From assembly GCF_029714205.1 (NCBI RefSeq), contig NZ_CP121648.1:5954501-6018500 (forward strand): a DNA stretch of 64,000 bases, read 5' to 3'. This document shows, one piece after another, positions 29,694 through 41,355 of this stretch (position 1 is the first letter of the stretch; each line of letters opens with the position of its first letter). This stretch comes from Methylobacterium sp. CB376. Lineage in GTDB: Bacteria > Pseudomonadota > Alphaproteobacteria > Rhizobiales > Beijerinckiaceae. The position numbers were made by a program, and so were the translations under genes. The notes under the pieces were generated by a model. The model saw only the letters and a list, made by a program, of their open reading frames with translations. It was not told the DNA's origin and made no database searches.

Positions 29694-30824
29694 TCAGCCC
29701 CGCGGGAACACCCGGGCCTCGCTCGCCGTGAGCGCCACCCGGTCGCCCTTGCGGTAGACCTCCGTCACCTTGACCTCGACCGCCCCGTCGGCGCCGTCGA
29801 GCTGGATCTCCGCCACCGTCCCGCGGGCGGTGCGGCGCCACTCGCGCACGGTGCCGAACAGGGCCGCCTCGCCCTGGCCCACGCTCATGTGCCAGGGGCG
29901 CAGGCAGAGATCGACCGGCCCCTCCGGCCAGTCGGGCGAGGCCGCCAGGGTCGGCCGCCCCTCGACATGGACGCGGCCCGCCCGGATCTCGGCGTCGAGC
30001 CGCGCCGTCTCCCCGACGAAGGACATCACGAAGCGCGAGGCCGGGTCGTCCTGGACCTCGTGCGGCGCGCCGACCTGCTCGATGCGGCCCAGGTTGAGGA
30101 TCGCGATCCGGTCGGCGAGTTCGAGCGCCTCGTCCTGGTCGTGGGTGACGAAGACCGTGGTCTGGCCGGTCTCGCGGTGGATCTCCCGCAGCCAGCGCCG
30201 CAGGTCCTTGCGCACCTGCGCGTCGAGGGCCCCGAAGGGCTCGTCGAGGAGCAGCACCGAAGGCTCGACCGCCAGCGCCCGGGCGAGCGCCACGCGCTGG
30301 CGCTGGCCGCCCGAGAGCTGGGCCGGGTAGCGCCCCGCCAGGGTCGGCAGCTGCACGAGGTCGAGCAGGTGGCCGACCCGGCGCTTGATCTCGGCCTCGG
30401 AGGGCCGCCGCGCGCGCTCGCGCGCCCGCAGGCCGTAGGCGATGTTCTCGAACACCGTCAGGTGCCGGAACAGCGCGTAGTGCTGGAACACGAAGCCGAC
30501 GCCGCGCCGCTGCACCGGCACGTCGGTCGTGTCGCGCGGCCCGAAGAACACCCGGCCCGCATCCGGGATCTCCAGCCCCGCGATCACCCGCAGCAGCGTG
30601 GTCTTGCCCGAGCCCGAGGGGCCGAGCAGCGCCAGGAGCTCGCCCGGCGCGATGGTCAGGCTCACCCCTTCGAGGGCCGCCGGGCCGTCGCCGCTGTAGC
30701 TCTTGACGATGCCCTCGACCCGCACCTCGGTGCCGGTGCTGCTCATGGTGCGCGCGGCCGCGGCCTCCCCGCCGCGGGCCTGCACGCGGGGCGCGGCGAG
30801 GGCGTCGGCGTAGCCCGCCACCAT
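29694..30824 (-). CDS. cysA: Sulfate/thiosulfate ABC transporter ATPase (CysA)
   Basis: ATPase of the sulfate importer, 376 residues from the start used. Walker [11 protein letters not shown]-loop [20 protein letters not shown], signature [15 protein letters not shown], Walker [12 protein letters not shown] and H-loop [10 protein letters not shown] are all present, followed by a C-terminal regulatory domain (about residues 265-376). ATG at 30824 is preferred because GGGGAG stands 8 bases before it and it directly follows cysW; the ATG at 30746 ([10 protein letters not shown]), closer to the family N terminus, is the alternative. Last gene of the six-gene cys operon. Confidence 0.92.
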
Positions 30825-30825
30825 C

Positions 30826-31683
30826 TCAGTGCGCTCCCCGGCCCGCAAGGGCGTCGGCGTGGCGCCATTCCAGGAAAGTCTTCCCCGCCAGAGTGATGAG
30901 GGCGAGGAGAGCCAGGAGCGAGGCGATCCCGAAAGCCGCGACGTAGTTGTACTCATTGTAGAGGATCTCGACGTGGAGCGGCATGGTGTTGGTGAGGCCA
31001 CGGATCCGTCCCGAGACCACCGAGACGGCACCGAACTCGCCCATCGCACGGGCGTTGCAGAGCAGGACGCCGTAGAGCAGCGCCCAGCGGATGTTGGGCA
31101 GCGTGACCGTCCGGAAGACCCGCCAGGGGCTCGCCCCGAGGGTCAACGCAGCCTCCTCGTCGGTGGTGCCCTGGTCCTGCATCAGCGGGATCAGCTCGCG
31201 CGCCACGAACGGGAACGTGACGAAGACCGTCGCCAGCACGATCCCCGGCACCGCGAAGATCACCTCGATGCCGTGGCGCTGCAGGAAGGGCCCGAACAGG
31301 CCCTGGGAGCCGAAGATCAGCACGTAGATCAGCCCGGCGACGACCGGCGAGACCGAGAAGGGCAGGTCGATCAGGGTGATCAGGAGGTTGCGGCCGCGAA
31401 AGTCGAACTTCGCGACGGCCCAGGAGGCGGCGATCCCGAACGCCACGTTGAGCGGCACCGCGATCACCGCGACGAGCAGCGTCAGGCGGATCGCCGCCTG
31501 CGCGTCCGGCTCCGCGAAGGTCGCCAGGTAGGTGGCGAGGCCGCGGCTCAGCGCCTCCGTGAACACCACGACGAGGGGCAGCAGCAGGAACAGGGCGAGG
31601 AAGGCCAGGGCCGCCAGGACGAGCGCGAGGCGCACGCCGCGCGGCTCGGTCAGGTAGGCCGGGCGGGAGACCGGCTCAGACAT
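30826..31683 (-). CDS. cysW: Sulfate ABC transporter permease CysW
   Basis: Inner-membrane permease, 285 residues with about six helices. The binding-protein-dependent transport motif reads [20 protein letters not shown] (the EAA loop that contacts CysA). [20 protein letters not shown] and [12 protein letters not shown] are typical of CysW. It overlaps the cysT end by 8 bp and ends 1 bp before the cysA start used here. Together with CysT it forms the transmembrane channel. Confidence 0.93.
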
Positions 31684-32572
31684 GGCCGAACCTCCGCCGG
31701 CTGTGATCCTGGATCAGGTTGATGGTGAGCAGCGCCCCGAACGACATCAGCAGCATCACGGCGGCGATCGCGGTCGCGCCAGTGTAGTTGAACTCTTCCA
31801 GCTTGATCACGATCAGGAGCGGCGCGATCTCGGACACGTAGGGCAGGTTGCCGGCGACGAAGATCACCGAGCCGTACTCCCCCACCGCCCGCGCGAAGGC
31901 GAGGGCGAAGCCGGTGAGCACGGCCGGCAGGAGCGGCGGCAGGATCACGGTGGCGAGGGCGCGCGGGCGCGACGCGCCCAGGATCGCGGCGGCCTCCTCG
32001 CTCGACTTGTCGATCTCGGCGACCAGGGGCTGCACCGTGCGCACGCAGAAGGGCAGGCCGACGAAGACGAGTGCCACCAGGATGCCAAGCGGCGTGTAGG
32101 CGACCTTGAGGCCGAGCGCCTCCAGGGGCGCGCCGAGCCAGCCGTTGCCGGAATAGAGCGTCGCGAGGCAGATGCCGGCGACCGCGGTCGGCAGCGCGAA
32201 GGGCAGGTCGACGAGCGCGTCGATCACCCGGCGGCCGGGGAAGCGGTAGCGGGTCAGCACCCAGGCGATGAGCAGCCCGAACACCGCGTCGATCGCCGCC
32301 GCCGCCAGCGACAGGCCGAAGGAGGTGCGCAGGGCCGCGAGGTTGCGCGCGTCGGTGAGGAGGGCCCACAGGCCGGCCGGGCCGATCGCCGAGGCGCGCA
32401 GCAGCAGCACCGCGAGCGGGATCAGCACCAGCAGGCTCAGGTAGGCGACGGCGAAGCCGAAGGTCAGGCGGAAGCCCGGCAGGGCGCTCGGCCGCCGGAA
32501 CGTCCGCCGGGCGGCCCGCGCCGCCGGCGCCGGCCCGGCGCCGGGCGATCCCAGGGCCGAGGCCGTGCTCAC
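31676..32572 (-). CDS. cysT: Sulfate ABC transporter permease CysT (CysU)
   Basis: Inner-membrane permease, 298 residues with about six helices; the N-terminal 30 residues are Ala/Pro/Arg-rich and cytoplasmic. The EAA loop is [39 protein letters not shown] and [14 protein letters not shown] mark CysT. The ATG at 32572 overlaps the stop of the cysN-sbp fusion (ATGA), so translation is coupled to the gene encoding the binding protein of the same transporter. Confidence 0.93.
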
Positions 32573-34965
32573 TGCCGCGCCTTCAGGATTGCGTCGAAGA
32601 CGCCGCCATCGTCGAAATGGGTCTTCTGCGCCTTGCCCCAGCCGCCGAAGGTGTCGTCGATGGTGACGAGCTTCAGCTTCGGGAAGCGGGCGAGGTCCTC
32701 CTTGGCGGCGGCGGATTCGTCGCGCGGGCGGTAGAAGTTCTTGGCGATGAGGGCCTGGGCCTGTTTGCCGTACAGGAATTGCAGGTAGGCCTCGGCCTGG
32801 CGGCGGGTGCCCTTCTGGTCGACGTTGCCGTCGACGAGCGCCACCGGCGGCTCGGCCAGGATCGAGAGCGAGGGGACGACGATGTCGAACTTGCCCTTCC
32901 CGAACTCCTCGTCCGCCAGGAAGGCCTCGTTCTCCCAGGCGATCAGGACGTCGCCGAGGCCGCGCTGCACGAAGGTCGTCGTGGCGCCGCGCGCGCCGGT
33001 ATCGAGGACCGGCACGTTCTTGAACAGGGCCGCCACGAAGGCCTTGGCCCTAGCGTCGTCGTTGCCGTTCTGGGCGAGCCCGTAGGCGTAGGCCGCGAGG
33101 TAGTTCCAGCGCGCGCCGCCCGAGGTCTTCGGGTTCGGGGTGATCACCTGGATCCCCGGCCTCACCAGGTCGTTCCAGTCCTTGATGGCTTTCGGGTTGC
33201 CCTTGCGCACCAGGAACACGATGGTCGACGTATAGGGCGTCGCGTTGTGGGGCAGGCGCTTCTGCCAGTCCGCCGGGATCTTCCCGGTGCGGGCCGCGAT
33301 CGCGTCGATGTCGCTGGCGAGGGCCAGCGTCACGACGTCGGCGGGGAGCCCGTCGATCACCGCCCGGGCCTGCGCGCCCGAGCCGCCGTGGGAGGCGCGC
33401 ACGGTCACGCTCTCGCCGGTCTTCTGCTTCCACTCGGCCGCGAAGGCGGCGTCGATCGCCCGGTAGAGCTCCCGGGTCGGATCGTACGAGACGTTGAGCA
33501 GCACCGCCTGCGCCTCGACCCGCGCGGGCGCGGCGAGGCCGAGGAGGGCCGCCCCGGCGAGGAGCGCGAGCCCCTTCGCCCCGAACAGCCGGCGCAGGCC
33601 GGAGAGGAACCCGCCGCGGCGGGCGGCGACCGGGTCTCGCGCCGGGCCTTGGGCTGAAACTTGGGCCGGGACTTGGACGAGGCCGAGGGCGGCCGTGTCG
33701 GTGGAGTCGCGGTCGATCAGGATCAGGCTGCCGGTGTCGCGGTTCTCCCGGTAGGCGTCCACCGCCACCGGCCGGTCGAGGCTGAGCACCACGTCGCCGA
33801 TGTCGTTCACGGCGAGCCGCTCGGCGGGCTCCGACAGGCCGGTCTCGGGATCGATGCGCGAGACGATGCGCTCGACGGTCGCGTTCGCCGTCGCGGTGCC
33901 GATCTTGGCGATGAGGGTCGCGCCCGCCGCGACCTCGCTCTCCCGCGCCCAGAACAGGCGCACGTCGAGCCGGTCGGCGACCCGCGGCGGGGCGCCCGCC
34001 GCCGCGATCACGCTGCCGCGCGAGGCGTCGCGCTCGTCGGCGAGGACCAGCGTCACCGACTGGCCGGCCACGGCCTCGTCGAGGTCGCCGTCCGCCGTGA
34101 AGATCCGCGCGATGGTCGAGGCTTGGCCCGAGGGCAGCAGCGCGACGGCGTCGCCCGGCGCCACCCGGCCCGAGGCGATCATTCCGGAGAAGCCGCGGAA
34201 ATCGGGGTTCGGCCGGTTCACCCACTGCACCGCCATGCGGAAGGGGGCGGCCTCCTCCTCCGCGTGGGCCGGCACCTCCTCCAGGTGCTGCAGCAGCGGC
34301 GGGCCGGCATACCAGGGCGCGGCGGCGCCCGGCAGCACGACGTTGTCGCCGTTCGCGGCCGAGAGCGGGATCGCCGTCACGTCGGCGAAGCCGAGCGGGG
34401 CCGCGAAGGCGCGGAACTCGCCCGCGATCGCCTCGAAGCGGGTCTCCGACCAGCCGATCAGGTCCATCTTGTTGACGGCGAGCACGACGCGCCGGATGCC
34501 CAGCATCGAGACCAGGAGCGCGTGGCGCCGCGTCTGCCGGCTCAGGCCCTTGCGGGCATCGACGAGCAGCACCGCGACGTCGGCCGTCGAGGCGCCGGTC
34601 GCCATGTTGCGGGTGTACTGCTCGTGGCCGGGCGTGTCGGCGACGATGAAGGAGCGCCGCTCGGTCGAGAAGAACCGGTAGGCGACGTCGATGGTGATGC
34701 CCTGCTCGCGCTCCGCCTGCAGGCCGTCGACCAAGAGCGCGAGGTCGATCTCGCCGCCGCGCGTGCCGTGGCGGCGGGAATCGCGCTCCAGCGCGGTCAC
34801 CTGGTCGTCGAAGATCTGCTTGGTGTCGTGCAGCAGGCGCCCGATCAGGGTCGACTTGCCGTCGTCGACGGAGCCGCAGGCGATGAAGCGCAGCACCTCC
34901 TTGCGCTGGTGGGCGGCGAGGAAGGCCTCGTAGCCGAAGGCGCGGGTGGACTGGTGCACCGTCAT
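32569..34965 (-). CDS. cysN: CysN-sulfate-binding protein fusion (ATP-sulfurylase GTPase subunit joined to periplasmic Sbp)
   Basis: One uninterrupted 798-residue frame holds two proteins normally encoded apart. Residues 1 to about 425 are CysN, the GTPase subunit of sulfate adenylyltransferase: P-loop GSVDDGKS 31-38, DTPGH 110-114, NKMD 165-168 and the beta-barrel domains. Residues about 430-460 are a Pro/Arg linker; 464-481 are hydrophobic ([15 protein letters not shown]) after RR and K residues, with a possible signal-peptidase site at RVEA-QA. Residues 487-798 are a complete sulfate-binding protein ([45 protein letters not shown]). No ATG, GTG or TTG lies in frame in the linker, so Sbp has no obvious start of its own. 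It overlaps cysD and cysT by ATGA. Confidence 0.9.
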
Positions 34966-35900
34966 CAGAAGTAGCCTTCCTGCTTCTTGCGCTCCATCGC
35001 GCCCGCCCCGTCCTTGTCGATCACCCGGCCCTGGCGCTCGGAGGTGCGGGCGGCCAGCGTCTCGCCGATGATCTCCGGCAGGGTCGCGGCCTCGCTCTCC
35101 ACCGCCCCGGTGAGCGGGTAGCAGCCCAGCGTGCGGAAGCGGACCTTGCGCAGTTCGGGCGTCTCGCCCGGCTCCAGCGGCAGGCGCGCGTCGTCGACCA
35201 TGATCAGCTGACCCTCGCGGCGCACCACCGGCCGCTCGGCCGCGTAGTAGAGCGGCACGATCGGGATGTTCTCCCGCTCGATGTAGAGCCAGATGTCGAG
35301 CTCGGTCCAGTTCGAGAGCGGGAAGACGCGCAGGGATTCGCCGCGCCTCTTCTTGAGGTTGTAGAGGTGCCAGGGCTCGGCGCGCTGGCGCTTCGGGTCC
35401 CAGCGGTGCTGGGCGGTGCGCAGCGAGACGACGCGCTCCTTGGCGCGCGAGGCCTCCTCGTCGCGCCGCGCGCCGCCGAAGGCCGCGTCGAACCTGTGCT
35501 TGTCCAGCGCCTGGCGCAGGGCCTGGGTCTTCATCACGTCGGTGTGGACCTCGGAGCCGTGGCTCACCGGGCCGATGCCGCGGGCGAGCCCGTCCGGATT
35601 CGTGTAGACCAGGAGGTCGAGGCCGAGCTCCTTCGCGCGCCGGTCGCGGAAGGCGATCATCTCGCGGAACTTCCAGGTCGTGTCGATGTGCAGCAGCGGG
35701 AAGGGCAGCCGGCCCGGCGCGAAGGCCTTCAGCGCGAGGTGCAGCAGGACCGACGAGTCCTTCCCGATCGAGTAGAGCATCACCGGGTTCTCGGTCTCGG
35801 CGACCGTCTCCCGCATGATGTGGATGCTCTCCGCCTCCAGGCGCTGCAGGTGGGTGAGGCGCGGAGAGGTCTCCGCGAAGGATCTGAGCGCGACGCTCAT
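34965..35900 (-). CDS. cysD: Sulfate adenylyltransferase subunit 2 (CysD)
   Basis: Catalytic ATP-sulfurylase subunit, 311 residues, forming APS from ATP and sulfate in complex with CysN. The PP-loop motif is [42 protein letters not shown] and [20 protein letters not shown] are family blocks, and the C terminus [12 protein letters not shown] is typical. The start ATG at 35900 overlaps the cysH stop, and its own stop overlaps the start of the cysN fusion (ATGA both times). Second gene of the operon. Confidence 0.96.
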
Positions 35901-36688
35901 GCGGCCAACTCCGGCTTCGACGAGGGCAGGCTGACGGACGATTGCGCCGGCGCGGTGGCACCGCGGTCCGGGACGCCGGCGACGTGCAGCCCGCACTCCT
36001 TCTTGGATTCCTGCTCCCACCACCAGCGCCCGGCCCGCTCGGGCTCGCCGACCTTCACGGCGCGCGTGCAGGGCGCGCAGCCGATCGACGGGAAGCCCCG
36101 GTCGTGCAGGACGTTGTAGGGGACGTAATTCTCGTGGACGACGCGGGCCACGTCCTCCCGCGACCAGTCGGCGAGCGGGTTGATCTTGATGAGACCCCGC
36201 GCCGCGTCGGCCTCCGCGAGCGGGGTCTCGGCGCGGTTCGCCGACTGGCCGGCGCGCAGCCCGGTGATCCAGGCCGCGGCACCCGCGAGGGCGCGGCCGA
36301 GCGGCACCACCTTGCGCAGGCCGCAGCAGGCCTGCCTTGCCTCCACCGAGTGCCGGAAGCCGTTGATCCCCTGCTGCGCCACGAAGCGCTCCTCGGCCTC
36401 GCGGTCGGGCACGTAGGCGCGGATGCGGACATCGTAGGCGGCCTCGGTCTCGGCCCAGACGTCGTAGGTCTCGGGGAAGAGCCGGCCGGTGTCGAGGGTG
36501 ACGATCTCGGCCCGCGACCGCGCCATGCGCAGGTGATGCGTCAGCGCCTGGTCCTCGAGCCCGAAGCTCGTGGTGAAGACCAGGCGGCCCTCGACGCGCC
36601 GGTCGATCAGCGCGAGCCGGGCGGCGATGTCGAGGGGGGCGAGCGCGAGGCTGAGCTCCTGCGCCGCGCGGTCGAGGGCGTCTGTCAT
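35897..36688 (-). CDS. cysH: Assimilatory APS/PAPS reductase (CysH), [4Fe-4S] type
   Basis: Thioredoxin-dependent reductase, 263 residues, giving sulfite from activated sulfate. The cluster-binding Cys pairs are in QACCGLRK and GCAPCTRAV, the mark of bacterial APS reductases; the catalytic Cys is in the C-terminal [21 protein letters not shown] is the nucleotide-site block. Because no APS kinase (CysC) domain is visible, APS is the likely substrate. The start is ATG at 36688 (MTDALDRA). First gene of the operon; a GTGTTCG-N6-CGAACA dyad lies 82-97 bp upstream. Confidence 0.93.
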
Positions 36689-37560: not shown

Positions 37561-39330
37561 ATGTCTCGATCCGCCCTTCTCCCCCGCACGGCCCCGTTCG
37601 GCGATGCCGAGCGGGCCCATCTCGACGCCGCCCTGGGGGCGGCGACGCCGCTCCAGCGCGCGTGGCTCACCGGCTTCCTGGCCGGGCTCGACGCCGCCGC
37701 GGGCGCCCCCGCCGAGGCCCCGCAGCCCGCCGCGCCCCCGCGGGCGGCCGAGCCGCTGACGATCCTGTTCGCGAGCGAGTCGGGGAACTCGGAGAAGCTG
37801 GCGGGCGACGTCGCCAAGCTCGCCCGCAAGGCCGGCTTCAAGCCGAAGGTGGTCGATTTCGCCGATCTCGACGTCGCCGCCCTGCCGCGGGAGAAGCGGG
37901 TCGTCCTGATCGCCGCGACCTGGGGCGAGGGCGAGCCGCCCGCGCGCGCCGTGCGGGCCTACAACGAGATCATGGCGGAGGGCGCGCCGCGCCTCGACGG
38001 GGTCGAGTTCGGGGTCCTGGCGCTCGGCGACACCTCCTACGCGGAGTTCTGCGCGGTCGGGAAGCGCCTCGACGCGCGCTTCGAGGCGCTGGGCGGCCGG
38101 CGGGTGCTTCCGCGGGTCGATTGCGACCTCGACTTCGACAAGCCCGCCGCCGGCTGGATCAAGGACGCGCTCAGGGCCCTGGCCCCGGCCGAGCCCGCCG
38201 GCAACGTCGTGGCGGTGGATTTCGCCCGCGCGGCGCCCGGGGAGGCGCCGGAGGTCAGCCGCGAGCCGGTCACCGCCGAGGTGATCGAGCACGTCAACCT
38301 GAACTCCTCGCGCTCCGACAAGGAGACGGTCCACCTCGCGCTGGCCTTCGAGGACGGCGCGCCGGCCTACGAGCCGGGCGATTCCCTCGAACTCTACCCC
38401 GAGAACGACCCGGCCCTCGTCGAGGAGATCCTGAGGGCGGCGGGCCTGGAGGGCGACGACGCGCTGCGCCGGGCCCTGCTCGCGGAGCGCGACATCACCA
38501 CGCTCTCGGCCGCCACGGTGGAGCGCTTCGTCAAGGCGACGGGCCACGCGGAGGCGCGCCGCCTCCTCGAGGCGAACGAGGTGCGGGCCTGGATCGAGGG
38601 CCGCCACCTGATCGACCTGCTCGAGACCTACCCGGCCAAGCTCTCGGCCGAGGGCCTCGCCGAGATCACCCGGCCGCTGCCGCCGCGGGCCTACTCGATC
38701 GCCTCCTCGCGCAAGGAGGTGGGGGACGAGGCCCACCTGACGATCGCGGCGGTGCGCTACACCAGCCACGGCCGCGCCCGGACGGGCGTCGCCTCGGTGC
38801 ACGTCGCCGACCGCATCCGCACCGGCGCCAAGCTGAAGGTGCGCGTGAAGCCCAACAGGCATTTCCGCCTGCCGGCCGACCCGGCGACGGACATCATCAT
38901 GGTGGGGCCGGGCACGGGCGTCGCGCCGTTCCGGGCCTTCGTCCAGGAGCGCCGCGCCACCGCGGCGCCGGGCCGCAACTGGCTGTTCTTCGGCGACCGC
39001 CGCTTCACCCACGACTTCCTGTACCAGCTCGAATGGCAGGACGCCCTGGAGGACGGCTCGCTCCACCGCATCGACGTCGCCTTCTCGCGCGACCAGCCCG
39101 AGAAGATCTACGTGCAGGACCGGCTCTACGCCCAGCGCCGCGAGGTGGTGGAGTGGCTGGAGAACGGCGCCCACTTCTACGTCTGCGGCGACGCCAAGGC
39201 GATGGCCAAGGACGTGCGGGCCGCCCTGGTGCGGGCCTACGCGGAGGTGAGGGCCCTGTCGCCCGAGGCGGCGGAGGCGGCCGTGGCCGCCCTGGAGAAG
39301 GCCAAGCGCTACCAGCAGGACGTTTACTGA
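37561..39330 (+). CDS. cysJ: Sulfite reductase flavoprotein subunit (CysJ type)
   Basis: Diflavin reductase, 589 residues, passing electrons from NADPH through FAD and FMN to the hemoprotein subunit. The flavodoxin domain begins at about 68 (LTILFASESGNSEKLAGDVA); the FAD domain has RAYSIASSRKE; the NADPH domain has GPGTGVAPFRAFVQERR, NWLFFGDRRF and the C-terminal YVCGDAKAMAKDVRA and RYQQDVY. An Ala/Pro-rich linker at 45-65 separates an N-terminal helical tail. Start ATG at 37561. It is followed by cysI 216 bp downstream on the same strand. Confidence 0.93.
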   Translation: MSRSALLPRTAPFGDAERAHLDAALGAATPLQRAWLTGFLAGLDAAAGAPAEAPQPAAPPRAAEPLTILFASESGNSEKLAGDVAKLARKAGFKPKVVDFADLDVAALPREKRVVLIAATWGEGEPPARAVRAYNEIMAEGAPRLDGVEFGVLALGDTSYAEFCAVGKRLDARFEALGGRRVLPRVDCDLDFDKPAAGWIKDALRALAPAEPAGNVVAVDFARAAPGEAPEVSREPVTAEVIEHVNLNSSRSDKETVHLALAFEDGAPAYEPGDSLELYPENDPALVEEILRAAGLEGDDALRRALLAERDITTLSAATVERFVKATGHAEARRLLEANEVRAWIEGRHLIDLLETYPAKLSAEGLAEITRPLPPRAYSIASSRKEVGDEAHLTIAAVRYTSHGRARTGVASVHVADRIRTGAKLKVRVKPNRHFRLPADPATDIIMVGPGTGVAPFRAFVQERRATAAPGRNWLFFGDRRFTHDFLYQLEWQDALEDGSLHRIDVAFSRDQPEKIYVQDRLYAQRREVVEWLENGAHFYVCGDAKAMAKDVRAALVRAYAEVRALSPEAAEAAVAALEKAKRYQQDVY

Positions 39331-39418: not shown

Positions 39419-39460
39419 CGACCATTCGAGAACGGACCCGGCGGTCATGAGACGTGACCG
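39419..39460. repeat. Partial inverted copy of repeat family B
   Basis: CCATTCGAGAACGG followed by CCCGGCGGTCATGAGAC is nearly the reverse complement of the start of the element at 47278 (29 of about 32 bases by eye). The overlapping ATGAGACGTGACCGCTGG matches the start of the element at 56238 (17 of 18). It lies between cysJ and cysI; the CCAAGC units are missing here. Confidence 0.55.
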
Positions 39461-39546
39461 CTGGCACGACACCCTGTTTCCCACGACGATCGCGGCATCC
39501 CCTCTCCCGCCCGAGAGGGGTTTCGCGTCTGGCACGGATCGCCGCC

Positions 39547-41355
39547 ATGGACGACACCAAGACCGCCTCCCCCGCCCCCGCGCGGGCCTACGAGACGCCG
39601 CCGGCCGAGCGGCCGATCACCGACGCGGAGGCGGCCCGCGCCGCCGCCCTGTCGGCGAACGAGCACATCAAGATCGCGAGCGGCTACCTCCGCGGCACCC
39701 TGGCGGACGGGCTCCTCAAGCACGCGACCGGCGCCATCTCGGAGGATGACGGTCAGCTCGTGAAGTTCCACGGCATGTACCTGCAGGACGACCGCGACCT
39801 GCGGCCCGAGCGGACCAGGAAGAAGCTGGAGAAGGCCTATTCCTTCATGATCCGCCTGCGCATCGCGGGCGGGGTGGTGTCGCCCAGGCAGTGGCTCGCC
39901 CTCGACGACATTGCCCGCACCTACGCCAACGGCACCCTGCGGGCGACGACGCGCCAGACCTTCCAGTACCACGGCGTGATCAAGTCGAACCTGAAGCGCA
40001 CCCTGCAGGCGATCGACGCGGTGCTGCTCGACACGATCGCGGCCTGCGGCGACGTCAACCGCAACGTGATGGCGGCCACGAACCCGGCCCAGACCGGCGC
40101 CCACGCGGCCGCCTACCGGCTCGCCAAGGACATCTCCGACTCGCTCCTGCCCAAGACCAACGCCTGGCGCGAGATCTGGCTCGACGGCGAGCGCGTGGCG
40201 GGCGGCGAGGACGAGGCGGCGGAGCCGGTCTACGGCCGGACCTACCTGCCGCGGAAGTTCAAGACCGTGGTGGCGGTGCCGCCCTCCAACGAGGTCGACG
40301 TGTTCGCCCACGACCTCGGCTTCATCGCCATCCTGGACAAGAAGAACGCGCTCAAGGGCTGGAACGTGACGGTGGGCGGCGGCATGGGCATGACCCACGG
40401 CGAGCCCGACACCTTCCCGCGCACCGCCGACCTGCTGGGCTTCTGCGAGCCCGCCGACGCCCTCAAGGTGGCCGAGGCGGTCATGACCGTCCAGCGCGAC
40501 TGGGGCAACCGCAAGTCCCGCAAGAACGCCCGCCTCAAGTACACGATCGAGCGCTACGGCCTCGCGGCCTTCCGGGCCGAGGTCGAGCGGCGGGTCGGCA
40601 AGCCCCTGCGGGAGCCGAAGCCGTTCCAGTTCACCGGCAACGGCGACCGCTACGGCTGGGTCGAGGGCGAGGACGGGCGCCACCACCTCACCCTCTACGT
40701 GCCGTCCGGCCGCATCAGGGACGTCGAGGGCGGGCCGCGCTACCTCTCGGGCCTGCGCCGCATCGCGGAGATCCACGAGGGCGATTTCCGGCTCACCGGC
40801 AACCAGAACGTCATCGTGGCGAACGTGCCGGCGGGGGCGCGCGCCGAGATCGACCGGCTGGTCGCGGAATACGGCCTCACCATCGGGGCGGGCGCCCTGC
40901 GCCGCAACAGCCTCGCCTGCGTGGCGCTGCCGACCTGCGGGCTCGCCCTCGCCGAGAGCGAGCGCTTCATGCCGGACCTGCTCACCCGCCTGGAGGAGCG
41001 CCTCGCGGCGCACGGCCTCCGGGACGAGGACATCACCGTCCGGATGACCGGCTGCCCGAACGGCTGCGCGCGGCCCTTCATCGCCGAGATCGGCTTCGTC
41101 GGCCGCGGCCCCGAGCGCTACAACGTCTATCTCGGGGCGGCCTTCGACGGCTCGCGCCTGTCCAAGCTCTACGCCGACGACGTGGCGGCGGCGGACATCC
41201 CGGCCCTGCTCGACCCGCTCTTCGCGGCCTACGCGCGGGAGCGCATCCCGGGCGAGCGCTTCGGCGACTTCGTGATCCGCGCCGGCTACGTCGCGAGGAC
41301 GGTCAACGGCCCGGATTTCCACGACCGGACCGGGCCGCTCCGGGCGGTGGCCTGA
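39547..41355 (+). CDS. cysI: Sulfite reductase hemoprotein subunit (CysI type)
   Basis: Siroheme/[4Fe-4S] sulfite reductase, 602 residues, reducing sulfite to sulfide with six electrons. The cluster and siroheme ligands are in ACVALPTCGLALAESER (C-x5-C) and TGCPNGCARPF (C-x3-C). Other blocks are RATTRQTFQYHGVIK and FRLTGNQNVIVANVP. The start is ATG at 39547, where the family N terminus begins; an upstream in-frame extension to 39454 crosses repeat sequence. It partners with CysJ. A nitrite reductase is the near alternative, but the cysJ/cysH context favours sulfite. Confidence 0.94.
   Translation: MDDTKTASPAPARAYETPPAERPITDAEAARAAALSANEHIKIASGYLRGTLADGLLKHATGAISEDDGQLVKFHGMYLQDDRDLRPERTRKKLEKAYSFMIRLRIAGGVVSPRQWLALDDIARTYANGTLRATTRQTFQYHGVIKSNLKRTLQAIDAVLLDTIAACGDVNRNVMAATNPAQTGAHAAAYRLAKDISDSLLPKTNAWREIWLDGERVAGGEDEAAEPVYGRTYLPRKFKTVVAVPPSNEVDVFAHDLGFIAILDKKNALKGWNVTVGGGMGMTHGEPDTFPRTADLLGFCEPADALKVAEAVMTVQRDWGNRKSRKNARLKYTIERYGLAAFRAEVERRVGKPLREPKPFQFTGNGDRYGWVEGEDGRHHLTLYVPSGRIRDVEGGPRYLSGLRRIAEIHEGDFRLTGNQNVIVANVPAGARAEIDRLVAEYGLTIGAGALRRNSLACVALPTCGLALAESERFMPDLLTRLEERLAAHGLRDEDITVRMTGCPNGCARPFIAEIGFVGRGPERYNVYLGAAFDGSRLSKLYADDVAAADIPALLDPLFAAYARERIPGERFGDFVIRAGYVARTVNGPDFHDRTGPLRAVA

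What the first reader, a model, noticed from the sequence alone, without database searches (positions are those of the whole stretch)
32569..34965. CysN fused in frame to a periplasmic sulfate-binding protein
A cytoplasmic GTPase (ATP-sulfurylase regulatory subunit) and the extracytoplasmic receptor of the sulfate importer form one 798-residue frame. The join carries positive residues, a hydrophobic stretch (464-481) and a possible signal-peptidase site, so an N-in/C-out topology is sensible. The linker contains no in-frame ATG, GTG or TTG from which Sbp could start, and the operon is otherwise tightly overlapping, so a lost stop codon by sequencing error is less likely than a true fusion. It could tether sulfate activation to the transporter, or be cut to release both parts. 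I do not know of this fusion being described.
Basis: partly seen in the sequence, partly recalled or inferred. Interest (0 to 1): 0.88.

Follow-up and report, generated by a model that had tools for sequence, protein, structure and literature searches.

The report
Sulfate enzyme fused to sulfate receptor
In one branch of Methylobacterium, the enzyme subunit that activates sulfate inside the cell and the receptor that catches sulfate outside it are encoded as one protein, joined by what looks like a built-in export signal.

Summary
On the minus strand (34965..32569) one stop-free 798-codon gene encodes a complete CysN followed by a complete sulfate-binding protein, Sbp. It is not a sequencing error: 20 of 111 genomes of the genus carry the fusion (linkers of 59-82 codons, none with a stop), as do 2 of 48 of a second genus (probably Microvirga), and 15 more distant full-length homologues exist at 61-70% identity. 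In the 20 genomes it is the only CysN and only Sbp found. The linker is under purifying selection. Its basic stretch ([12 protein letters not shown]) is the native C-terminal tail of unfused Methylobacterium CysN. It runs straight into a hydrophobic core and a signal-peptidase-like site before mature Sbp, so Sbp has lost its own start codon and signal n-region.
Best reading: every CysN is born attached to Sbp, the internal signal threads Sbp through Sec, and signal peptidase I probably frees it, leaving CysN tail-anchored at the membrane. The fusion as primary product is close to certain; export is likely; cleavage and tethering are inferred. An additional internal CTG/TTG start for free Sbp is the main rival. 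I found no description in the papers searched, though a database product name reflects the fusion.

The parts
33676..34965 (-). CysN part (residues 1-430): GTPase subunit of ATP sulfurylase with [14 protein letters not shown] and NKMD motifs
33616..33675 (-). spacer (residues 431-450), variable in length and sequence between species
   Evidence: dN/dS 0.52 for residues 430-451
33580..33615 (-). native CysN C-terminal tail [12 protein letters not shown] (residues 451-462), now also the basic n-region of the signal
   Evidence: same kind of tail ends 17 of 17 unfused Methylobacterium CysN examined; dN/dS 0.34 for residues 452-463
33526..33570 (-). hydrophobic core of the internal signal (residues 466-480)
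   Evidence: max Kyte-Doolittle over 15 residues 2.16
33508..33519 (-). predicted signal peptidase I site VEA|Q (483-486), cut after Ala485
32572..33510 (-). mature Sbp part (residues 486-798), sulfate-binding residues kept; stop codon at 32571-32569
34965..35900 (-). cysD, catalytic partner of CysN; overlaps the fusion gene by 1 base
35897..36688 (-). cysH, APS/PAPS reductase (start not certain)
31676..32572 (-). cysT, permease of the sulfate importer; GTG start overlaps the fusion gene's stop by 4 bases
30826..31683 (-). cysW, permease
29694..30746 (-). cysA, importer ATPase (start not certain)
37561..39330 (+). divergent cysJ, sulfite reductase flavoprotein
39454..41355 (+). divergent cysI, sulfite reductase haemoprotein (start not certain)

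Best explanation
cysN and sbp form one gene, so a ribosome that finishes CysN goes on into Sbp (shown by the sequence: no stop). CysN folds in the cytoplasm and pairs with CysD. Its basic C-terminal tail plus the Sbp hydrophobic core act together as an internal Sec signal that threads the Sbp domain into the periplasm, N-in/C-out (inferred, supported by conservation). Signal peptidase I most likely cuts after Ala485, releasing ordinary periplasmic Sbp for CysTWA and leaving the spent signal on CysN as a C-terminal membrane anchor (inferred). The consequences would be 1:1 synthesis of receptor and activating enzyme, and ATP sulfurylase held at the inner membrane, possibly near the sulfate importer encoded just downstream.
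For: Same open frame in 20 of 111 genomes of the genus and 2 of 48 of the second genus; 24 full-length fused proteins, the window's own included, among the 120 listed of 8000 hits, 15 of them at 61-70% identity. No second match over 65 bits in the own genome and none over the Sbp half; none in the other 19 fused genomes at E<=1e-30; no Sat-type ATP sulfurylase in the own genome. Linker under purifying selection with coding-like GC3 (19 loci). All 17 unfused Methylobacterium CysN examined end in a tail like GG[FL]LSG[LI][KR]RLFGG, which in the fusions continues into the h-region. Signal-peptidase-like site: loose rule (-1 A/G/S, -3 A/V/S/T/G/I/L, before Q or D) 24 of 24, strict (A or V at -3, A at -1) 19 of 24, against shuffle means 2.7 (max 11) and 0.9 (max 6) of 24. 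Core hydrophobicity mean 1.99 (22 fused rows) against 2.15 (17 unfused Sbp leaders). Order cysH-D-N::sbp-T-W-A with divergent cysJI in 5 of 5 Methylobacterium fused loci with large flanks (L045, L136-L139) and in L135 of the second genus. Both halves map to solved folds with ligand residues kept.
Against: No experiment: protein size, cleavage and place in the cell are unknown, and no SignalP or TMHMM was available. The linker is rich in small residues, so the bare -3/-1 letters recur at 40% of nearby positions. The codon before RRLF is NTG in 19 of 20 loci, so an extra start is not excluded; its predicted ribosome-site energy in the window (-5.5) is close to those of cysD (-6.1) and cysN (-6.5) and better than cysT (-3.5). 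Two second-genus fusions keep an internal ATG (-11.7 and -7.4 kcal/mol). The window's own tail is not significantly amphipathic (shuffle p 0.079). Two SulP-type transporters exist, so Sbp need not be essential. In AlphaFold residues 436-494 are below pLDDT 50, so no model supports a membrane helix.
Confidence: 0.55

Rival explanations
1. The full 798-residue fusion stays uncut: one polypeptide spans the inner membrane with CysN inside and Sbp tethered outside, next to CysTWA.
For: Same topology features; CysN carries a DUF2061 predicted membrane domain in related Microvirga, so membrane attachment of CysN may recur.
Against: A signal-peptidase-like site is kept in 24 of 24 fusions by the loose rule although the spacer drifts; mature Sbp starts in the usual place.
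Confidence: 0.2
2. Sbp is also made independently from an internal non-canonical start (Leu457, CTG in the window, TTG/GTG in some species), giving a normal leader (M)[14 protein letters not shown]...; the long fusion is a by-product or only the CysN form.
For: NTG at that place in 19 of 20 loci (16 CTG, 2 TTG, 1 GTG), where 57% of Leu codons in these genes are NTG; ribosome-site energy comparable to cysD and cysN; the NCBI-sourced Sbp-only entries of M. nodulans (P0123) and M. terrae (P0125) start exactly there; the second-genus fusions keep an internal ATG with a Shine-Dalgarno-like stretch.
Against: One of 20 has CTC; the next Leu is CTG in 18 of 20, so NTG is not special to that place; unfused CysN has CTG there in 9 of 17. 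14 of 20 lack any ATG/GTG/TTG before the h-region and the six that have one have it at differing places. It would not stop CysN from carrying Sbp, as there is no stop.
Confidence: 0.2
3. The Sbp domain stays in the cytoplasm and passes or buffers sulfate for CysDN.
For: Both halves lie in one chain; the linker is poorly modelled.
Against: Hydrophobic core and cleavage-like site are conserved and the region is under purifying selection; cysTWA follows in the same operon and no other Sbp was found in the genome.
Confidence: 0.03
4. Sequencing error or a decaying gene.
For: 91 of 111 genomes of the genus have separate matches for the two halves.
Against: 20 genomes share the open frame; dN/dS 0.14-0.20 in the two domains; it is the only copy found of both.
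Confidence: 0.02

Closest known systems
CysN, GTPase subunit of CysD-CysN ATP sulfurylase (1zun)
   Same: whole CysN with all GTPase motifs, next to cysD
   Different: does not end: native tail runs into an export-like signal and Sbp
CysNC / NodQ bifunctional CysN-APS kinase
   Same: fusion at the CysN C-terminus
   Different: partner is a periplasmic receptor, not a cytoplasmic kinase; NF004035 below its cut-off (633 < 715 bits), no APS kinase domain among the Pfam matches
Sbp (sulfate-binding protein, 1sbp, 5um2) of the CysTWA importer
   Same: complete mature Sbp, ligand residues kept, followed by cysT-cysW-cysA
   Different: no ATG/GTG/TTG start or n-region of its own in the linker; leader supplied by CysN
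CysN-DUF2061 of Microvirga
   Same: CysN extended by a predicted membrane domain in the same bacterial family
   Different: no Sbp attached; sbp lies about 4 kb downstream
Type II single-pass proteins (for example RodZ, anti-sigma factors, PBP1b; recalled)
   Same: cytoplasmic N-terminal part, one internal signal/anchor, periplasmic C-terminal domain
   Different: here the two ends are a metabolic enzyme subunit and a soluble transport receptor, with a signal-peptidase-like site

Membership tests
CysN (TIGR02034, NF003478) | profile score above curated cut-off over the whole domain | tested here: met
   588 bits against 336 and 602 against 590
CysN (TIGR02034, NF003478) | cysD partner gene beside it | tested here: met
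   cysD 35900-34965, overlapping
CysN (TIGR02034, NF003478) | GTP-dependent sulfate adenylation with CysD | not testable with these tools
   needs enzyme assay
CysNC / NodQ | C-terminal APS kinase domain | tested here: not met
   no such domain among the Pfam matches; NF004035 633 bits, below cut-off 715
Sbp (NF008022, TIGR00971) | profile score above curated cut-off | tested here: met
   496 against 288 and 468 against 155.5; the CysP (thiosulfate) model NF008106 is also passed, 353 against 308
Sbp (NF008022, TIGR00971) | sulfate-ligand residues Ser45, Ser130, Gly131, Gly132, Ala173, Trp192 of 1sbp (positions recalled) | tested here: met
   identical in the alignment to 1sbp, residues counted by hand
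Sbp (NF008022, TIGR00971) | own start and N-terminal signal peptide | tested here: not met
   no ATG/GTG/TTG in codons 430-487; leader n-region is the CysN tail; a CTG start is not excluded
Sbp (NF008022, TIGR00971) | export and signal peptidase I cleavage | tested here: inconclusive
   site present in 24 of 24 (loose) and 19 of 24 (strict) fusions; no experiment

The most novel reading that the evidence does not exclude
In this clade the sulfate receptor and the sulfate-activating enzyme are obligatorily born as one trans-membrane polypeptide. A cytoplasmic enzyme's own C-terminal tail has become the n-region of an internal signal peptide, so that ATP sulfurylase is physically anchored at the membrane beside the CysTWA importer and imported sulfate is activated where it enters. 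The related CysN-DUF2061 proteins suggest that membrane-bound CysN evolved more than once in this bacterial family.
Probability: 0.4. Interest if true: 0.8.

Novelty: new variant of a known kind. Interest (0 to 1): 0.62.

Why it matters
It would be a natural one-chain link between a periplasmic nutrient receptor and the first cytoplasmic enzyme acting on that nutrient, crossing the membrane through an internal signal sequence. It makes the question whether sulfate-assimilation enzymes are organised at the importer directly testable by fractionation. It also shows that database entries can hide such a fusion: the Sbp entries of M. nodulans and M. terrae hold only the C-terminal part although the DNA is fused.

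Tried and rejected
Sequencing error or pseudogene: rejected by 20 fused genomes and low dN/dS. CysN-APS kinase misreading: rejected by Pfam/NCBIfam. Chance open frame in GC-rich DNA: unlikely, as all 20 linkers are stop-free in frame 0 while the +1 frame has a stop between codons 440 and 490 in 11 of 20 (the +2 frame in only 1 of 20). Programmed frameshift giving free CysN: stop positions in the other frames differ between loci, so not pursued. Ribosome-site energies do not decide the internal-start question: CTG457 -5.5, cysD -6.1, cysN -6.5, cysT -3.5, cysW -10.2.

Number of origins: the CysN tree rejects all fused rows as one clade (29 fused of 63 rows, lnL difference 395, AU p 3.5e-43), but the Sbp tree of 47 rows does not (29 fused, p 0.088). 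Gain twice, one gain with losses, or recombination of the sbp half were not separated. The trees held part of the data: 11 fused Methylobacterium loci (10 of the 20 genomes, plus L045, whose protein is identical to that of L012), L038 and L163, and 19 of the 23 other fused proteins (P0005, P0007, P0008, P0009 left out). Rows dropped: from CysN U_P0088 (in fact a truncated fusion), U_P0091, O_L107, F_P0017, F_P0003, F_P0004; from Sbp all 18 unfused protein-only rows (their label is doubtful, because entries can be split fusions), F_P0003, F_P0004, F_L009, U_L168. With the doubtful rows in, the trees need 6 (CysN) and 9 (Sbp) changes of label.

Wider searches: order 397 genomes, 2 full-length fusions, both in the window's genus, at E<=1e-200; class 385 genomes queried with P0018, only the own genome at E<=1e-190; family 298 genomes, 5 fused at E<=1e-236, while G105 was drawn but missed at that cut-off because its match is in two pieces. 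The taxa of the 15 distant fusions are not known from these calls. Helical-moment test of the CysN tail: shuffle p below 0.05 in 10 of 17 unfused and 3 of 6 fused tails tested, 0.079 in the window: only suggestive. Promoter/terminator scan of 32000-35500 empty. Structure search re-found the two parent folds.

Errors of mine corrected: searches (script failed; minus-strand loci read in the wrong orientation; stopped at the locus L038), redone; the CysA and CysI queries were out of frame, redone correctly.

Full report
What is there. The interval 32569-34965 is one gene on the minus strand, 798 codons and a stop. Residues 1-430 are a complete CysN (TIGR02034 588 bits, cut-off 336; NF003478 602 bits, cut-off 590) and residues 478-798 a complete sulfate-binding protein (NF008022 496 bits, cut-off 288; TIGR00971 468 bits, cut-off 155.5; the thiosulfate model NF008106 is passed too, 353 against 308). 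By sequence they match solved CysN (1zun_B, 13-430) and Sbp (1sbp, 488-795); the sulfate ligands of 1sbp (positions recalled, counted by hand) are identical. AlphaFold gives two folded domains (mean pLDDT 71) with 436-494 below 50, and Foldseek re-finds the same two parents.

Gene order. The operon reads cysH-cysD-[cysN-sbp]-cysT-cysW-cysA with overlapping ends at cysD/cysN, sbp/cysT and cysT/cysW, and cysJ-cysI diverge from it. In 5 of 5 fused Methylobacterium loci examined with large flanks (L045, L136-L139) the order is the same; of the two second-genus fusions, L135 has it all and L163 has cysH to cysA but no cysJI in the 17 kb held. In the 10 unfused Methylobacterium sbp loci examined with flanks (L125-L134), sbp is followed by cysT and, in all but L126, by cysW and cysA, with no cysN match in the stretch. 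One search lists separate sbp matches for 38 of the 91 unfused genomes; none of these 38 lies within 10 kb of its cysN on the same contig.

Is it real? In 111 genomes of the genus, 19 have one full-length match over residues 1-798 and a twentieth (G105) has both halves in one open frame; the other 91 have two or three separate matches. Two of the 20 (G000, G050) are one species. The linkers of the 20 are 59-82 codons long with no stop. In 19 of these loci (L009 left out as a near-copy) dN/dS is 0.20 for CysN, 0.52 for the spacer, 0.34 for the tail, 0.36 for the hydrophobic and cleavage region and 0.14 for Sbp, with GC3 0.88-0.97 through the linker. In the own genome the eight further matches have at most 65 bits and 28-36% identity, lie in the CysN half (one runs to residue 480), are probably translation factors (not checked), and none covers the Sbp half. 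There is no Sat-type ATP sulfurylase, but there are two SulP-type transporters, so sulfate could enter another way.

How it was joined. All 17 unfused Methylobacterium CysN examined end in a tail such as SGGLLSGIKRLFGG* or GGGFLSKLRWVFGGI*; the fusions carry the same kind of tail ([12 protein letters not shown] in the window) and then go straight into a hydrophobic core and a signal-peptidase-like site before LLNVSYDP, the conserved start of mature Sbp. So the CysN tail has taken over as the basic n-region and Sbp has lost its own. In the 24 full-length fusions of alignment A1 a site by the loose -3/-1 rule stands just before mature Sbp in 24 of 24, by a strict AxA/VxA rule in 19 of 24; shuffling the last 24 residues gives means of 2.7 (max 11) and 0.9 (max 6), although the bare -3/-1 letters occur at 40% of nearby positions. 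The linkers are otherwise poorly conserved. The core is about as hydrophobic as that of unfused Sbp leaders (mean 1.99, n=22 rows with one duplicate, against 2.15, n=17).

Internal starts. In the window no ATG, GTG or TTG lies in codons 430-487. Of the 20 Methylobacterium fusions 14 have none before the hydrophobic core and six have one or two at differing places (in L017 a GTG at the first residue of the core window was not counted). The Leu codon before RRLF is CTG in 16, TTG in 2, GTG (Val) in 1 and CTC in 1 of 20; the next Leu is CTG in 18 of 20, and NTG makes up 57% of Leu codons in these genes. Predicted ribosome-site energy at that codon is -5.5 in the window, similar to cysD (-6.1) and cysN (-6.5), so it is a possible but unproven extra start. 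The Sbp-only entries of M. nodulans (P0123) and M. terrae (P0125) begin there; their contig lengths equal G030:C7 and G105:C1, which are fused in the DNA. Two fusions of the second genus (probably Microvirga, from the contig length 1,387,944 shared by P0109 and G777) keep an internal ATG with Shine-Dalgarno-like stretches (-11.7 and -7.4 kcal/mol) and may represent an earlier stage. Whatever an internal start does, there is no stop, so ordinary translation of CysN must run on into Sbp.

Distribution and origin. Among the 120 proteins listed of 8000 hits, one search has 24 full-length fusions, nine close (81-100%) and fifteen at 61-70%. Genome surveys: family 5 of 298 at E<=1e-236, second genus 2 of 48, order 2 of 397, both in the window's genus, class only the own genome of 385. 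The CysN tree places the Methylobacterium fusions as one supported group (SH-aLRT 99) inside unfused Methylobacterium, with the distant fusions elsewhere; one clade of all fused CysN is rejected (p 3.5e-43). In the Sbp tree the fused Methylobacterium Sbp are not with the genus's ordinary Sbp (support 100), but one clade of all fused Sbp is not rejected (p 0.088). Repeated gain, loss, or import of a foreign sbp-cysTWA block are therefore all open.

Mechanism. Shown: one open frame, only copies found, selection on the linker, a leader built from CysN tail plus hydrophobic core, a conserved cleavage-like site. Inferred: Sec export of the Sbp half, cutting after Ala485, and CysN left anchored by the spent signal. 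The related CysN-DUF2061 proteins (three of three tested by Pfam; five loci read as DNA) suggest that putting CysN on the membrane is a recurrent theme in the family; this is inference.

Literature. Nine searches of the held open-access library (20 asked about DUF2061, 62 about internal signal peptides, 70 about CysNC) found no account of the fusion. Two papers were seen only as listing entries (PMC8609655, PMC7478625) and PMC5770160 only as found passages, which treat CysN as an EF-Tu relative. Subscription journals are mostly absent from that library. A JGI product name, 'sulfate adenylyltransferase subunit 1/sulfate transport system substrate-binding protein', carried by the Sbp-length proteins P0147 and P0149, suggests that automatic annotation has registered the fusion.

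Noticed in passing
L047:5466-7082; L164-L167; proteins P0091, P0109, P0116: In Microvirga-type genomes CysN is extended at its C-terminus by a DUF2061 (PF09834) predicted membrane domain, with sbp-cysTWA about 4 kb downstream: a second way of attaching CysN to the membrane. No paper found with both terms.
   Followed up: partly
L135:7380-7620 (G297) and L163 (G768): Fusions of the second genus keep an internal ATG with a Shine-Dalgarno-like stretch inside the open frame, so they may make both the fusion and free Sbp: a possible intermediate stage.
   Followed up: partly
P0123 (M. nodulans), P0125 (M. terrae); also P0121, P0122, P0124, P0127: Database Sbp entries of M. nodulans and M. terrae start at internal CTG/TTG codons of the fused frame. 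P0121, P0122, P0124 and P0127, from other Methylobacterium, have similarly short leaders, but their DNA was not checked.
   Followed up: partly
C-termini of unfused Methylobacterium CysN, e.g. L029, L037, L046: A conserved short tail (GGLLSGIKRLFGG or like) of unknown role ends ordinary CysN in the genus; its helical moment beats shuffles at p<0.05 in 10 of 17, so it may touch the membrane.
   Followed up: partly
Sbp tree: The Sbp of fused Methylobacterium belongs to a different Sbp lineage than the Sbp of the rest of the genus, hinting that the sbp-cysTWA block was replaced or imported.
   Followed up: partly
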